Positions 1-59,045 of a DNA stretch of 64,000 nt are shown here, piece by piece. Origin of the DNA: Candidatus Onthomonas avicola (GTDB taxonomy: Bacteria; Bacillota; Clostridia; Oscillospirales; Oscillospiraceae). Made by a program: the position numbers and the translations under genes. Positions within the stretch are counted from its first letter, which is position 1. Each line of letters opens with the position of its first letter. The notes beneath the pieces were generated by a model that ran no database searches, was not told the DNA's origin, and was given only the letters and a program-made list of their open reading frames with translations. The stretch lies in assembly GCA_018710845.1 (NCBI GenBank), contig DVJB01000030.1:1-64000 (forward strand). Reading direction: 5' to 3'.

Positions 1-299
1 GTCCGGGAAATATCAGACGGAGCAGGCGCAACTGGACGAAAAAATCGGACAGCTTCAAGCCGCTATCGCCGCCGAGAGCCAGACCGTAGCAGACGCGGAA
101 AACTGGATTGCGCTGATGAAACAGTATGTCAATCCGACGGAACTAACCGCCGAACTTTTGAATACGCTGATTGAAAAAATCGTTGTCCATGAAGCGGTCA
201 AGGGCGAGGACGGAAGCCGGGAGCAGGAGGTAGAAATCTTCTACCGCTTTATCGGCAAAATTGATTGAATGACACCAATATCTTTAACTATGTGATACC
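1..299 (+). mobile_element. Right end of an integrative element
   Basis: The window opens inside the recombinase gene of an integrative element. Only 30 bp separate the recombinase stop (266-268) from sequence that reads as the middle of a host XRE-regulator gene (from about 297), so the element boundary lies near 297-300. The element side is visibly less GC-rich than the host side. The other end, and any attachment-site partner, lie outside the window. The boundary is inferred from where host reading frame resumes; the crossover dinucleotide cannot be fixed from one end. Confidence 0.7.
2..268 (+). CDS. Large serine recombinase, C-terminal end (partial)
   Basis: Reading from base 2 gives 88 residues ending at TGA 266-268; the start is outside the window. 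The stretch has a coiled-coil-like Gln/Glu/Ala segment (EQAQLDEKIGQLQAAI), then the motif LTAELLNTLIEKIVVHEA and an ending EVEIFYRFIGKID. This is the typical carboxy end (DUF4368 type) of TndX/TnpX-class large serine recombinases that excise and integrate clostridial conjugative and mobilisable elements. The catalytic serine domain is not visible. Its stop lies 30 bp from the element-host junction, the usual place for such a gene. Family assignment rests on the tail only but the match in character is strong. Confidence 0.8.
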   Translation, partial: SGKYQTEQAQLDEKIGQLQAAIAAESQTVADAENWIALMKQYVNPTELTAELLNTLIEKIVVHEAVKGEDGSREQEVEIFYRFIGKID

Positions 300-947
300 G
301 GCCTGAGCCTGCCCGACATCGCCCTGCTCGAGCCGCTGGCACAGACGCTGAAGGTGACCATCTCCGAGCTGCTGCGCGGTGAGCGGCTGGAGCGGGCGCT
401 GCCGCTGGAGGAGGTAGAGCAGCTGGTGACCGGCTCGCTCACCCTCACGGCCCGGGAGCGGGCCGCACGGGCCGCGCGCCGACGGCGCTGGGGGCTGCGC
501 CTGGCCGCAGCATGTGCGCTCGCCGCGGCCGAGATCGCCCTGCTGGCGGCGGCCAGGCTGCTGGAGCTGGAGACGCTGGGGATGCTGTTATTGGCGGAGG
601 GGATGCCGGTCGCCTTTGGCGCCTGGTTCTGCCTCGCGGCTCATGAGACGCTGCCGCCGTACTATGACGAGTATCCCATCGGCTTTTACGCGCAGGGCCC
701 GGTTCGCCTGCATCTGCCGGACATCCGGCTGACCAACCGCAACTGGCCGGCCATCCTGCGCGCGGCGCGATGGAGCCTGCTGGCGATGCCGGTGGTCTAC
801 CCGCTCCTCTATGGCCTGGCGGCCTGGCTGCTCGCGCCCCGCCTGGAGCGCGGGGTCTGGCTGCGGACGTGGAACGCCGTGACGCTGGTATGGGTGCTGG
901 CGGGCATTTTCCTGCCGATCTACCTGGCCGCGCGGCGGTCGGACTGA
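297..947 (+). pseudogene. XRE-family membrane regulator, 5' end removed by element insertion
   Basis: In-frame reading from 297 gives TGLSLPDIALLEPLAQTL then KVTISELLRGE, the second half of a Cro/CI-type helix-turn-helix domain. The first half, including the recognition-helix region and start codon, is missing; an in-frame TAA sits at 285-287 in the element sequence. The rest encodes a linker and about four hydrophobic helices with a central segment containing PPYYDEYPIGFYAQGPV, as in clostridial HTH proteins with a membrane-domain tail. A GTG at 354 could start a 197-residue membrane fragment but has no good ribosome binding site. It is best read as a regulator gene disrupted by the element at its left. 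The original ligand or target is unknown. Confidence 0.75.
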
Positions 948-971
948 TTTTTACGCGAAGATGACAGAAAA

Positions 972-1003
972 AGACGTCTGGTCCAACCGGTCACCAGACG
1001 TCT
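972..1003. repeat. Terminator hairpin, left copy of 32-bp direct repeat
   Basis: Perfect copy of 1248-1279. It is a hairpin with an 11-bp stem (AGACGTCTGGT and its complement) and a 10-nt loop. Upstream AAAAA (969-973) gives a T-run for minus-strand transcription, so this copy terminates transcription coming from the amylase gene. Confidence 0.9.
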
Positions 1004-1247
1004 CAGACTGTCGAAAAAACATATTTTGAGATTTCAAATGCAGGCTAAAAGTTCAGAAAGCCCTCCGCAGGAGTTTTGTTGCGTCAGCAACAAAATAGAG
1101 TGAAATATCGTTTTTGGGACGGGCGTGTACCGGCCCAAAAACACAGGGAGGCCGAGAGTGTGCCCCGCAGGGGCGCGCGGGTCGGCCGCATGTTTCGAAC
1201 AAAATCGCAGATTTTGTTCGAGCGTGTCGACCTTTGTCGACACGCTG
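1004..1247 (+). mobile_element. MITE-like structured element E1, inserted in a terminator
   Basis: A 244-bp non-coding insert that begins CAGACTGTCGA (1004-1014) and ends with the inverted form, whose complement is CAGCGTGTCGA (1237-1247). The first 15 bases of the two ends match at 12 positions. Both ends abut a perfect 32-bp direct repeat of a terminator. Inside are hairpins at 1074-1095 (9-bp stem), 1111-1141 (TTTTTGGG stem, the conserved core), 1151-1186, 1196-1220 (11-bp stem) and 1222-1245 (10-bp stem). No convincing gene is present; open frames across it merely read through the palindromes. A homologue, E2, lies in the opposite orientation at 31480-31694. Mobility is inferred from the structure. 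Confidence 0.75.
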
Positions 1248-1279
1248 AGACGTCTGGTCCAACCGGTCACCAGACGTCT
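1248..1279. repeat. Terminator hairpin, right copy of 32-bp direct repeat
   Basis: Perfect copy of 972-1003, starting on the base after E1 ends. It is followed by TTTTCTCTT and so can terminate plus-strand transcription. It lies 6 bp past the stop codon of the amylase gene. Confidence 0.9.
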
Positions 1280-1285
1280 TTTCTC

Positions 1286-3181
1286 TTATCGGTTGTCCTC
1301 GGACTGGAAAGCATCCTTCCGAGGTCCCGGGTAGTGCAGGATCACCCCGCCCATCCGCTTGACCGGGATGGAGAGCGTGCCCTCCCGGCTGGTCACATAG
1401 CGGTGACCGCCCTCCAGATTGACCGCGTACGGAAATGGCCAGGGGATGGAGACCTGGGAGTCCGCTGTGCCATTATTCACTGCCACGGCGATCCCCTCGC
1501 CCGGCAGCGTGCGGGTGTAGGAGATGTGGTTCCGGTGGCAGTCGCCCCAGGCAAAATCGCCTCTGCGCAGGCAGGGGAGCTCCTTGCGCAGCTTGCCCAT
1601 CTTGCGGTAAAAGTTCAGAATTCCGAGATTTTCCTTGCCCCACGGGAAGGGACGGCGGTTGAACGGGTCCTCAAAGCCCTGCATCCCCACCTCGTCGCCG
1701 TAGTAGACGGTGGGCGAGCCGGGGAAGGTGAAGAGCACCATCAGCCCAAGCTGCAGCCGCCGCCAGCCCCAGACGATCTCCGCGGAGGACATGTGATAAT
1801 GCGCCCGCGTCTCGCGCGACCACTCATAGCGCTGCGAGCCGACGCCGAGATAGGTGAGAATGCGCAGCGTGTCGTGCGTGCCCAGCGCGTTCATGGCCGA
1901 GTAAAAGGCGAAGGGGGGATAGTTCTCCCGGATGGTCTCCATCCGGTTCTGAAAGTGCTCGCCGTTGTCGCCCAGCAGAAAGTCGATCAGCGCCGAGCGG
2001 AAGGGATAGTTCATCAGCCCGTCGAGATGGTGGCCGAGCAGGTGGCGGCGGCGCACGCCGTAGGCGACCTTGTTGCTCCCGTCCTCCCAGACCTCTCCGA
2101 TCAGAATGGCGTTCGGGTTCTCCGCCCGCACGGCCTCGTGGATGCCGCGGACAAAATCGTCCGGCAGCTCGTCGGCCACGTCCAGACGCCAGCCGTCCGC
2201 CCCCGCGCGCAGCCAGCGGCGGATGACGGAGTTCTCCCCGCCGTAGATGAATTCGCGGTAAGAGGGGTTATCCTTGTTCACCGCCGGCAGGGAGTAGATG
2301 CCCCACCAGGACTCGTACTCGTCCGGCCAGTGGTGGAACTGGAACCAGTCATAGTAGGGGGAGTCCGCCCCCTGCGCCGCGCCGCGGGTGGGATAAAAGC
2401 CGTCGCCGTTGAAGTAGCGGCTGACATAGCCGGTGTGGTTGAATACCCCGTCCAAAATCACCCGGATGCCCCGCGCATGCGCGGCCCGGCACAGCCGGGT
2501 GAAGTCCTCATAAGTGCCGAGCATGGGGTCAATGTGGTCGTAGTCGGCGGTGCCGTAGCGGTGGTTTTCCGCGGCCTCAAAGATGGGGCAGAAATAGATG
2601 GTCTCCACCCCGAGCGAGGCGATGTAGTCCAGCTTCTGCTCTACCCCCTTCAGGCTGCCGCCGAAGAAGTCCCGGTTGCGGATCTCGCCGTTCTCATTCG
2701 GACGCCATTCCGGCTCGTCGTCCCAGCGCCCGTGTACCGTCCGCCCGCCCACCATGCCGAAGGGGTTGGGCACCTCCGTCCGGCAGAAGCGGTCGGGAAA
2801 GATGTGATAACATACGCCCTCGCCAAACCAGGAGGGCACCTCATCCGTGGGGTCGTAGACGGTGAGCTGGTAGGGGCCGAGCTCCTTGCTCTTGCCGCCC
2901 AGCGTCTCCAGCCGGAAGGAATACCAGATCAGACCGACATACTCCCCCACCGGTAGCGAGCCGGAGAAGGTGTCGATGCCGAGCGCTGTGTCCGTCCACA
3001 CCAGCGGGCGCTCCTCCACCCGGCTGCCGTCAAACTCATAGCACGCGCGCAGCACGCCCCGGGAGAAGCCCTCCTGCCGCTGGGGGCGCAGGGTGAAGTC
3101 CACCGTCGTGCCGGAGGGGACCGCGCCGTACGGGCGCTTATAGGTCAGGTCGCGTGAGTTGTAGATATGATCGTCATACAT
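1286..3181 (-). CDS. GH13 alpha-amylase / neopullulanase-type glycosidase
   Basis: 631 residues; hydrolyses alpha-1,4 (possibly alpha-1,6) linkages in maltodextrins or cyclodextrins. All GH13 landmarks are present: region I DGVFNHTG (244-251), region II GWRLDVADE with nucleophile Asp334, region III IGEVWED with acid/base Glu363, and region IV GTHDT with Asp437. An N-terminal beta-rich domain of about 115 residues precedes the catalytic barrel, as in neopullulanases and cyclomaltodextrinases. No signal peptide, so it should act in the cytoplasm on imported oligosaccharides. The ATG at 3181 follows GAAAGGGTGG. It stands alone, with its own promoter (3304-3332) and the duplicated terminator of E1 downstream. 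Exact substrate is not decidable from sequence. Confidence 0.88.
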   Translation of the reverse strand: MYDDHIYNSRDLTYKRPYGAVPSGTTVDFTLRPQRQEGFSRGVLRACYEFDGSRVEERPLVWTDTALGIDTFSGSLPVGEYVGLIWYSFRLETLGGKSKELGPYQLTVYDPTDEVPSWFGEGVCYHIFPDRFCRTEVPNPFGMVGGRTVHGRWDDEPEWRPNENGEIRNRDFFGGSLKGVEQKLDYIASLGVETIYFCPIFEAAENHRYGTADYDHIDPMLGTYEDFTRLCRAAHARGIRVILDGVFNHTGYVSRYFNGDGFYPTRGAAQGADSPYYDWFQFHHWPDEYESWWGIYSLPAVNKDNPSYREFIYGGENSVIRRWLRAGADGWRLDVADELPDDFVRGIHEAVRAENPNAILIGEVWEDGSNKVAYGVRRRHLLGHHLDGLMNYPFRSALIDFLLGDNGEHFQNRMETIRENYPPFAFYSAMNALGTHDTLRILTYLGVGSQRYEWSRETRAHYHMSSAEIVWGWRRLQLGLMVLFTFPGSPTVYYGDEVGMQGFEDPFNRRPFPWGKENLGILNFYRKMGKLRKELPCLRRGDFAWGDCHRNHISYTRTLPGEGIAVAVNNGTADSQVSIPWPFPYAVNLEGGHRYVTSREGTLSIPVKRMGGVILHYPGPRKDAFQSEDNR

Positions 3182-14139: not shown

Positions 14140-14167
14140 AGAGCTTGGCCGCAAGGCAACAGAATGC

Positions 14168-14264
14168 ACAGGGGCGCTGGGGGACATCTCCGGCTGAGAT
14201 TGGGACAAAGCGCAGTCCCAGGCACCTTGAACCTGATCCGGGTAATGCCGGCGTAGGAAGCTGT
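14168..14264 (+). promoter_or_regulatory. TPP riboswitch (THI element)
   Basis: Contains the two invariant THI blocks: GGCTGAGAT (14192-14200) and CTTGAACCTGAT followed by GGGTAATGCC and GCGTAGGAAG. Outer pairing is ACAG (14168) with CTGT (14261-14264). Binding of thiamine pyrophosphate should favour the terminator at 14289-14332 and switch off thiT. Confidence 0.95.
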
Positions 14265-14288
14265 TTCTGATGGGACACCGTCCGCTTT

Positions 14289-25861: not shown

Positions 25862-26001
25862 TAAAATTTTTACGTTTTTCCCAATCTGTTCCGATTTATT
25901 TTGCCGGACGGCCCGCCTGACGGTGCTGTCCCGCCGCCGAAGGCGCGACGGAGGAGGGAAAGGGGCGAAAAGAGCGGCAAAATGCCATAAAGAGACGAAA
26001 A

Positions 26002-26032
26002 GCGCCCGCCGCGAAAAATACGCGGCGGGCGC
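26002..26032 (-). terminator. Terminator of the feo operon
   Basis: Perfect 12-bp stem GCGCCCGCCGCG with 26021-26032, 7-nt loop; TTTTCG follows on the minus strand. Confidence 0.88.
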
Positions 26033-26046
26033 GGCAGGTCCAATCG

Positions 26047-31441: not shown

Positions 31442-31479
31442 TGCCGCCCCGGCCGCGTGAGAACGCAGCCGGGGCGGCT
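31442..31479. repeat. Terminator hairpin, left copy of 38-bp direct repeat
   Basis: Perfect copy of 31695-31732. 11-bp GC stem (GCCGCCCCGGC/GCCGGGGCGGC) with a 14-nt loop, 19 bp after the proS stop. It is unrelated in sequence to the 972-1003 repeat. Confidence 0.92.
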
Positions 31480-31694
31480 AAGGCTGTCAAAAAGTGTTTT
31501 TGACAGCCTTTCGCACAAATGCAAGCATTTGTGCGAGATTGCAGTCCTCCCACGCGCACGGATTTTTGTTCCAAAAATCCGCACACTCGTCGGACTATTA
31601 GTATTTTTGGCCCGGTACATGCCCGTGCCAAAAATAAATTGAACTCTATTTGGCTCTTCGAGCCAAACTCGGTGAGACCTTTTTTGACATGCTG
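31480..31694 (-). mobile_element. MITE-like structured element E2, inserted in a terminator
   Basis: 215-bp non-coding insert, orientation opposite to E1. Ends are AAGGCTGTCAA (31480-31490) and, inverted, CAGCATGTCAA (31684-31694). Hairpins at 31482-31508 (12-bp stem), 31511-31536 (12-bp stem), 31559-31581 (10-bp stem), the conserved core palindrome 31604-31634 (TTTTTGGC stem) and 31649-31667 (8-bp stem). Core and neighbouring TAGAGT spacer align with E1 1096-1141; the other hairpins keep their positions but not their sequence. AT-rich compared with the host. No gene inside. Confidence 0.75.
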
Positions 31695-31732
31695 TGCCGC
31701 CCCGGCCGCGTGAGAACGCAGCCGGGGCGGCT
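31695..31732. repeat. Terminator hairpin, right copy of 38-bp direct repeat
   Basis: Perfect copy of 31442-31479, beginning on the base after E2 ends. It lies 6 bp before the TTGACA of the next promoter. Confidence 0.92.
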
Positions 31733-58755: not shown

Positions 58756-59045
58756 ATCCACCGATGCGCTGCGGCGCATTGTGCGATGATGCAGGAGATT
58801 GCGGACGGAGGTCCGGTAACTTCTGCGGAGTATGTCCGGGCTGGATCTGGGCGGCTGTGAGAAGACACTGTGCGATTCTGGCGTATATCGCCATGCGCGG
58901 TGGAGACGGCCGGCGGTTTGCGTCGGCTTTCTTTGCTGAGATGGAGTGATACACACGGCACAGCGTATGTTAATCTCGACCAGCCCTCCGCTCCAAATAC
59001 CCCCGGTTCATGTACAACTAGTACGAAAACAAGGAGGAGCACACC

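What the first reader, a model, noticed from the sequence alone, without database searches (positions are those of the whole stretch)
972..1279. Element E1: a structured non-coding insert flanked exactly by a duplicated terminator
Seen directly: a 244-bp segment (1004-1247) has imperfect inverted ends (CAGACTGTCGA and CAGCGTGTCGA) and abuts, with no spare bases, a perfect 32-bp direct repeat that is a complete bidirectional terminator hairpin. Each copy retains a T-run on one side only (minus for the left, plus for the right), so the insertion leaves one working terminator in each direction. Known transposase target duplications are normally 2-14 bp; duplicating a whole 32-bp hairpin is odd. 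Inference: a mobile, possibly trans-mobilised element that targets intrinsic terminators and is neutral to the host because the target is copied.
Basis: partly seen in the sequence, partly recalled or inferred. Interest (0 to 1): 0.85.

Follow-up and report, generated by a model that had tools for sequence, protein, structure and literature searches.

The report
Mobile element duplicating its hairpin target
A short non-coding mobile element inserts at DNA hairpins, mostly gene terminators, and usually leaves a complete copy of the hairpin on each side, so the length of the duplicated target seems to be set by the shape of the DNA and not by a fixed ruler in the enzyme.

Summary
Window 1004-1247 is a 244-bp insert between two identical 32-bp hairpins (972-1003, 1248-1279). 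It has 20 long matches in its own genome and belongs to a family whose core occurs in 20 of 32 genomes of the genus. Of 77 family copies with both ends defined, 59 are flanked by a 19-40 bp direct repeat; most repeats are hairpins, and repeat edges track the hairpin feet. Related genomes hold empty sites with one hairpin; one lies in this window (26000-26033). The ends (CAGNNTGTC) match those of one clade of IS1182-family insertion sequences. Of 25 such IS copies seen with both flanks, 15 have the same hairpin at both ends, 9 two different hairpins and 1 a hairpin at one end only. In Thermocaproicibacter one "different" pair is exactly reciprocal between chromosome and plasmid, as recombination between two copies predicts. 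Best reading: a non-autonomous (MITE-like) element moved by an IS1182-type transposase that joins at the 5' feet of an extruded hairpin. Hairpin targeting by an IS1182 relative is published. Whole-hairpin duplication was proposed in print in 2017 as one possible pathway; I found no documented case in the papers I could search. Mobilisation in trans and the cruciform step are inferred.

The parts
972..1003 (.). left copy of the duplicated target hairpin (A-run on its outer side, i.e. T-run for minus-strand transcripts)
   Evidence: 32/32 identical to 1248-1279; the unit folds at -18.8 kcal/mol
1004..1247 (+). E1, a 244-bp non-coding MITE-like element (subfamily I)
   Evidence: 33 matches in own genome, 20 of them long (E <= 5e-40); RNA fold z = -7.2
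1004..1018 (+). left terminal inverted repeat CAGACTGTCGAAAAA
   Evidence: same 15 nt as the end of the autonomous IS1182 copy L322/L405
1110..1142 (+). core stem-loop with CGGGCRTGTACCGG at its tip (1120-1133)
   Evidence: compensatory pair changes within and between subfamilies
1221..1246 (+). terminal palindrome at the right end (includes the right inverted repeat CAGCGTGTCGA, read on the minus strand)
   Evidence: structure; the equivalent palindrome of another E1 copy was itself hit and duplicated (L017)
1248..1279 (.). right copy of the duplicated target hairpin (T-run on its outer side)
354..947 (+). upstream gene, no Pfam match; converges on the element
1286..3181 (-). alpha-amylase-family gene whose 3' end faces the element
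   Evidence: PF00128, E 2.3e-51
31442..31479 (.). left hairpin copy of the second family member in the window
   Evidence: 38/38 identical to 31695-31732
31480..31694 (-). second family member (subfamily III), 215 bp
   Evidence: core at 31612-31625; ends AAGGCTGTCAAAAAG and TTTTTTGACATGCTG
31695..31732 (.). right hairpin copy of the second family member
26000..26033 (.). empty target site: one hairpin, which in the related genome G025 (L214) is present twice around a 206-bp family member
   Evidence: flanks 99% identical over 2 x 240 bp

Best explanation
E1 is a non-autonomous (MITE-like) member of an IS1182-type transposition system. SHOWN: it is repetitive; it shares end sequences with one clade of IS1182-family insertion sequences; both kinds sit at hairpins and usually leave a whole copy of the hairpin on each side; empty sites hold one copy; the repeat length follows the hairpin. 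INFERRED: an IS1182 transposase supplied in trans binds the CAGNNTGTC ends, recognises an extruded target hairpin or cruciform and joins the two 3' ends of the element at the 5' feet of the hairpin on the two strands. Repair of the resulting long single-stranded gaps copies the hairpin. At non-hairpin targets the same chemistry leaves an ordinary short repeat of about 4-10 bp. Because each gene of a convergent pair keeps a hairpin with its own T-run, insertion at a bidirectional terminator is probably close to neutral, which would explain the accumulation there.
For: Copies and repeats: 73 of 135 usable copies have a flanking direct repeat scoring >=30, against 2 of 559 cross-paired controls; at >=40, 70 against 0. 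With both ends defined: 59 of 77. Hairpin nature: 70 of 73 repeats fold >5 kcal/mol below shuffles. Structure sets the length: repeats of 19-40 bp, both edges within 6 nt of the hairpin feet in 56 of 59; the 3' edge is within 3 nt of the foot in 78%, against a mean of 35% when lengths are permuted (highest of 2000 permutations 56%). Empty sites: window 26000-26033 against G025 L214; G016, G017 and G029 against G004, G020 and G028; G000 C8 against G025 L219. Partner: IS1182-family transposases over the NCBIfam cut-off (381, 394 and 385 bits against 270) with the same ends; 24 of 25 copies seen with both flanks have a hairpin at each end, 15 of them the same hairpin, 20-39 bp. The hairpin-type transposases form one supported clade (99/98). 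Nested case: L017. Own genome keeps an IS1182 remnant next to a hairpin.
Against: 18 of 77 copies with both ends lack the long repeat. On a strict ungapped palindrome score only 41 left and 46 right flanks of 77 (34 both, 53 either) exceed the 99th percentile of 458 control windows. Of 25 IS1182 copies, 9 carry different hairpins at their two ends and 1 (L320) has a hairpin at one end only; recombination is demonstrated for one chromosome/plasmid pair. The only IS1182 copy found in the window's genome is broken (287 aa open frame), so no active source is seen there. No transposition was observed; terminator activity was not measured. Few bases of most hairpin repeats lie outside the stem (0-3 at either edge in most), less than the 4-10 bp of non-hairpin repeats, so a single 'constant stagger' rule is not proven.
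Confidence: 0.86

Rival explanations
1. Hairpin-replacing transposition as published for IS1272: the element removes the target hairpin and brings no duplication; the two hairpins seen are independent terminators of the convergent genes.
For: Same IS family and same target class (PMC5678879, PMC4923244, passages read). Nine of 25 IS1182 copies do have two unlike hairpins.
Against: The direct repeat of 59 of 77 MITE copies and the hairpins of 15 of 25 IS copies are the same sequence on both sides; empty sites retain one hairpin; in T. melissae the unlike pairs are reciprocal.
Confidence: 0.04
2. The hairpin is carried along as part of the mobile unit and is not a target.
For: Elements nearly always have something palindromic at their ends.
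Against: Hairpin sequence differs from copy to copy within one genome, and the empty site has that very hairpin without the element.
Confidence: 0.02
3. The transposase makes variable long staggered cuts in ordinary duplex DNA and merely prefers dyad-symmetric sequence bound as double strand; no hairpin extrusion is involved.
For: Long variable repeats are known for some DDE elements (recalled, no call); nothing here shows extrusion in the cell.
Against: Repeat edges follow the hairpin feet over a 19-40 bp range with unrelated sequences and variable loops, hard to reconcile with two duplex half-sites at changing distance; several non-hairpin targets show only short repeats (by eye).
Confidence: 0.25
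4. E1 is a structured non-coding RNA gene with twin terminators, not a mobile element.
For: Strong fold (z -7.2) and covarying core stem.
Against: 20 long matches at different places of one genome, empty sites, nested insertion, ends shared with IS1182. An RNA-level role of the interior is still possible in addition.
Confidence: 0.03
5. The hairpin doubling is an assembly artefact or a secondary tandem duplication.
For: Many family copies lie at contig ends in these draft genomes; the left flank of IS copy L407 runs into N.
Against: The same pattern occurs in 15 genomes of the genus, in 11 further genomes and in plasmid records of Sutcliffiella and Enterococcus; copies have diverged with age (24 identical, 27 at 90-99%, 8 below 90%).
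Confidence: 0.01

Closest known systems
IS1182 family insertion sequences, clade with CAGNNTGTC ends (NCBIfam NF033551)
   Same: Same ends, same target class, same whole-hairpin duplication in 15 of 25 copies; transposases over the family cut-off.
   Different: E1 carries no recognised gene and the resemblance that I established is the 15 bp at its left end.
IS1272 / TnSha1 of staphylococci (IS1182 family; PMC5678879 abstract and passages, PMC4923244 passages)
   Same: Target hairpins, several of them terminators, without sequence specificity; structure-dependent insertion.
   Different: IS1272 removes all or part of the hairpin and leaves no target duplication; E1 and its partners usually keep it twice. 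PMC5678879 proposes whole stem-loop duplication only as an alternative pathway (its Fig 13, pathway b).
Bacterial MITEs in general (review PMC10969869, passages read)
   Same: Short, repetitive, inverted ends, structured, parasitic on an IS.
   Different: Target duplication set by a hairpin; the words IS1182 and hairpin do not occur in that review.
IS elements inserted in REP palindromes (PMC1525189, PMC8450116; search listings only)
   Same: Palindromic intergenic targets.
   Different: Those targets are a repeat family; here hairpins of unrelated sequence serve.

Membership tests
MITE (non-autonomous derivative of an IS) | short, without a transposase gene | tested here: met
   244 bp; the three small frames that overlap it (69-78 aa) have no Pfam match; the only long frame starting in it runs antisense through the amylase gene
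MITE (non-autonomous derivative of an IS) | multicopy at unrelated loci | tested here: met
   20 long matches; 46 core matches in own genome; 20 of 32 genus genomes; reversed-pattern control 2 matches in all
MITE (non-autonomous derivative of an IS) | terminal inverted repeats shared with an autonomous element | tested here: met
   CAGACTGTCGAAAAA identical to the end of IS1182 copy L322/L405
MITE (non-autonomous derivative of an IS) | moved in trans by that transposase | not testable with these tools
   no transposition assay; inferred from ends and target habit
IS1182-family transposition system (partner) | transposase over the curated family cut-off | tested here: met
   L082 381, L318 393.8, L323 385.1 bits against 270
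IS1182-family transposition system (partner) | targets palindromes or hairpins | tested here: met
   hairpin at both ends in 24 of 25 copies with both flanks in the CAGNNTGTC clade; IS1182 members with other ends showed no long direct repeat (scores up to 25)
IS1272-type hairpin-replacing transposition | target hairpin removed, no target duplication | tested here: not met
   empty sites with one hairpin, filled sites with two
known structured RNA family | match to an Rfam model | tested here: not met
   no match at gathering level or up to E = 1 in window 950-1300

The most novel reading that the evidence does not exclude
Transposases of this IS1182 clade read DNA shape: they prefer to insert across an extruded hairpin or cruciform, so each such insertion is a fossil record of a hairpin that was extruded in a living cell, and the duplicated hairpin is a two-sided tag that also reveals later recombination between copies. 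The covarying interior of the MITE (tip CGGGCRTGTACCGG with compensatory stems) has a further role at RNA or single-strand level.
Probability: 0.45. Interest if true: 0.78.

Novelty: new variant of a known kind. Interest (0 to 1): 0.64.

Why it matters
Target-site duplication is normally taken as a fixed ruler of a transposase (a few bp). Here its length follows the secondary structure of the target, 19-40 bp in the MITEs and 20-39 bp in the IS copies. That gives natural evidence for a pathway proposed for IS1272 but, in the papers I could search, not documented. It explains how an element can invade terminators without destroying them, offers a genomic read-out of hairpin extrusion in vivo, and supplies hairpin tags that identify IS-IS recombination, as in plasmid pTVN.

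Tried and rejected
Known RNA family: Rfam gave nothing. Hairpin as carried cargo and IS1272-like replacement as the general mode: rejected by empty sites. The IS1182 remnant in the own genome as a complete donor: rejected, it is broken. The site orthologous to E1 in G025 as an empty site: it is not empty; it holds another 130-bp element with CAG...CTG ends between two diverged hairpins. G030 has a single hairpin after its amylase gene, but by eye its other neighbour is a gene in another orientation, so it is only a partial empty site. At the G004/G020/G028 site, G002 has other DNA downstream and was not used; six more distant hits (L370-L375) were not judged. An IS1182-like element in G013 (L084) with CAGACTGTGTCAAAA ends lies outside the clade and shows no hairpin beside it. 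The per-flank palindrome score without bulges was less clear-cut than the direct-repeat test and is reported as such. Row L315 in the transposase tree came from a wrong frame (very long branch) and is left out of the clade statement. Only 80 of the 93 stretches found were listed.

Copy accounting. E1 subfamily in own genome (21 loci L001-L021; flanks read by eye, L017): duplicated hairpin 11 (L001-L005, L007, L009, L011, L014, L017, L018); short repeat 4 (L006, L008, L013, L020); none 2 (L015, L019); truncated or one-sided 4 (L010, L012, L016, L021). The 143 core-bearing stretches include 8 too short to use and at least one chance match (L213). One search adds 10 copies from one further assembly (JAJQBJ); 4 of those 10 had a repeat score of at least 30. 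Of the 18 copies without long repeat, by eye: short repeat 8 (L006, L008, L025, L158, L165, L176, L199, L203), diverged or partial hairpin 3 (L190, L235, L290), none seen 7 (L015, L043, L147, L167, L194, L197, L215). IS1182 copies: 32 loci were looked at, 21 (three of them the same places as, one the own remnant) and 4 plasmid loci; those with an end beyond the contig, with other ends, or with an end lost (among them L082, L316, L319, L325, L409, L419, L421) are not among the 25.

Full report
What is there. The window holds two identical 32-bp hairpins at 972-1003 and 1248-1279 with a 244-bp insert exactly between them. The insert begins CAGACTGTCGAAAAAA and ends TCGACACGCTG. The left hairpin has the A-run and the right hairpin the T-run of what looks like one bidirectional terminator between two convergent genes, an unnamed gene (354-947, +) and an alpha-amylase-family gene (1286-3181, -). 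In the whole window only two exact direct repeats of at least 18 bp lie 60-3000 bp apart: this pair, and a 38-bp hairpin pair at 31442-31479 / 31695-31732 that flanks a second, related element.

Family. The repeat plus insert has 33 matches in its own genome, 20 of them long (E <= 5e-40). Among 59 genomes the insert matches 19, all in the genus; 0 of 27 genomes outside the genus matched. A 14-base core at the tip of its central stem-loop, CGGGCRTGTACCGG, occurs 46 times in the own genome and in 20 of 32 genus genomes, against 2 matches of the reversed control in all. I distinguish three subfamilies: I (E1), II (other species; ends CAG..TGTCAAAAAAG and GACAGGCTC) and III (the copy at 31480-31694).

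Flanks. I collected 143 core-bearing stretches and aligned left against right flanks. Of 135 usable ones 73 have a direct repeat scoring at least 30 and 70 at least 40, against 2 and 0 of 559 cross-paired controls. Of the 73 repeats 70 fold more than 5 kcal/mol below shuffles. With both element ends defined, 59 of 77 copies have the long repeat. These repeats are 19-40 bp long (median 31) and begin and end at the hairpin: both edges within 6 nt of the hairpin feet in 56 of 59, and 78% of 3' edges within 3 nt of the foot, against 35% after permuting lengths (highest of 2000 permutations 56%); repeat length and hairpin span correlate at 0.72. On a stricter ungapped palindrome score per flank, 41 left and 46 right flanks of 77 (34 both) exceed the 99th percentile of 458 controls. 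Of 59 pairs, 24 are identical, 27 are 90-99% and 8 under 90% identical; both copies keep similar folding energy (mean -22.8 and -23.1 kcal/mol; for the 20 pairs under 95% identity, -19.5 and -20.8). In an old pair (L282, below the score limit and so not among the 59) the two copies differ at many stem positions, yet each is still a good hairpin, as expected if each is used as a terminator. At least three of six bases are A before the left repeat in 36 of 59, and T after the right repeat in 37 of 59.

Exceptions. 18 of 77 lack the long repeat; sorted by eye, 8 have short repeats of 4-10 bp (for example CAACCAAGAG, CAATTCC, AGTTTT), 3 have diverged or partial hairpins, and 7 have nothing that I could see. 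So hairpins are strongly preferred, not obligatory.

Not only terminators. In locus L017 a subfamily III element sits in the terminal palindrome of an E1 copy and has duplicated it (26 of 29 positions), while a diverged pair of the original hairpin flanks the composite.

Empty sites. Window 26000-26033 is a single hairpin; the related genome G025 has the same hairpin twice around a 206-bp subfamily III element, with flanks 99% identical. G016, G017 and G029 have one hairpin where G004, G020 and G028 have two around a subfamily II element, with the same sequence on both sides. G000 contig C8 has one (diverged) hairpin where G025 has two. At the site orthologous to E1 itself, G025 has a different 130-bp element with CAG...CTG ends between two diverged hairpins; G030 has a single hairpin after the amylase gene, but its other neighbour differs.

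Partner. The own genome has one broken IS1182-family gene whose right end, TTAACAGTCTG, abuts a hairpin. G030, with 13 matches to E1, has an intact gene of 476 aa that scores 381 bits against the IS1182 cut-off of 270; its element starts CAGCTTGTCAAAG and ends TTTTGACAGGCTG, next to a hairpin; its left neighbour is beyond the contig. Across genus, family and order, and in named plasmids, 25 IS1182 copies with such ends could be seen with both flanks. In 15 the same hairpin lies at both ends (20-39 bp; L318, L405-L407, L410, L411, L413, L415-L417, L422, L424, L425, and L427 and L429 in plasmids of Sutcliffiella horikoshii and Enterococcus faecium). In 9 there is a hairpin at each end but the two differ (L083, L315, L326, L408, L412, L414, L423, L428, L426/L430). 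In 1 (L320) only the right end has one. The transposases of this type form one clade of 19 rows with support 99/98, counting two copies at contig ends; one row (L315) had to be discarded. IS1182 members with other ends showed no long direct repeat (scores up to 25).

Why some pairs differ. This is exactly what recombination between two IS copies would leave, and it suggests that the plasmid arose by excision between them or has integrated and left. For the other unlike pairs this is an extrapolation.

Interior. The central stem pairs in all subfamilies although its sequence changes: for example one pair is G-C in 8, C-G in 4 and T-A in 3 of 15 distinct E1 sequences, and another is C-G in subfamily III (19 of 19) and G-C in E1 (15 of 15) (the right-hand base of that last pair was used to sort the groups, its partner was not). 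The tip was the search pattern, so its conservation is by construction.

Mechanism. Inferred: the transposase joins element 3' ends to the 5' feet of an extruded hairpin on both strands; gap repair copies the hairpin. This is pathway b of the scheme in PMC5678879 (passages read), which the authors set beside the hairpin removal they saw for IS1272. PMC4923244 (passages read) reports hairpins, several of them terminators, as IS1272/TnSha1 targets, with partial deletion of the hairpin. I found no paper documenting whole-hairpin duplication in the listings of 10 searches of the held library; subscription reviews were not held.

Judgement. It is a new variant of a known kind: hairpin-targeting by an IS1182 relative is known; whole-hairpin duplication, its dependence on hairpin length, and a genus-wide MITE family exploiting it appear not to be documented in what I could search.

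Noticed in passing
window 31442-31732: A second family member (subfamily III, minus orientation) with a perfect 38-bp duplicated hairpin.
   Followed up: yes
L412, L426, L430 (Thermocaproicibacter melissae chromosome and plasmid pTVN): Reciprocal hairpins A-IS-B and B-IS-A around identical IS1182 copies: the 19-kb plasmid pTVN, which carries cas10, looks like an IS-IS excision circle or an integration partner.
   Followed up: partly
L017 1462-2073: Subfamily III element nested in the terminal palindrome of an E1 copy, with that palindrome duplicated.
   Followed up: yes
L010, L013-L017, L019, L020: E1 copies come in modular sizes: optional GC-rich inserts of roughly 47 and 40 bp at two internal places.
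   Followed up: no
L394 844-973: The orthologue of the E1 site in G025 holds a different 130-bp element with CAGACCGTCGAAAAA / TTTTTTGACACGCTG ends between two diverged hairpins: the same terminator was hit in two species, or an old insertion has turned over.
   Followed up: partly
L026 and L220: The terminator after what reads by eye as the ribosomal protein L7/L12 gene carries a subfamily III element with a doubled hairpin in both G000 and G025; probably a shared insertion.
   Followed up: no
window 2-265: C-terminal end of a protein with a DUF4368 match (E 8.6e-25), a domain I recall from large serine recombinases; the gene that follows aligns with G025 from window 301, where the compared stretch began, so whether a mobile element ends there is open.
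   Followed up: partly
window 14163-14276 and 58778-58857: TPP riboswitch and S10-Clostridia ribosomal protein leader.
   Followed up: no
ends of several G000 contigs: Draft contigs often stop within about 150 bases of a family core, so copy numbers here are probably lower bounds.
   Followed up: no
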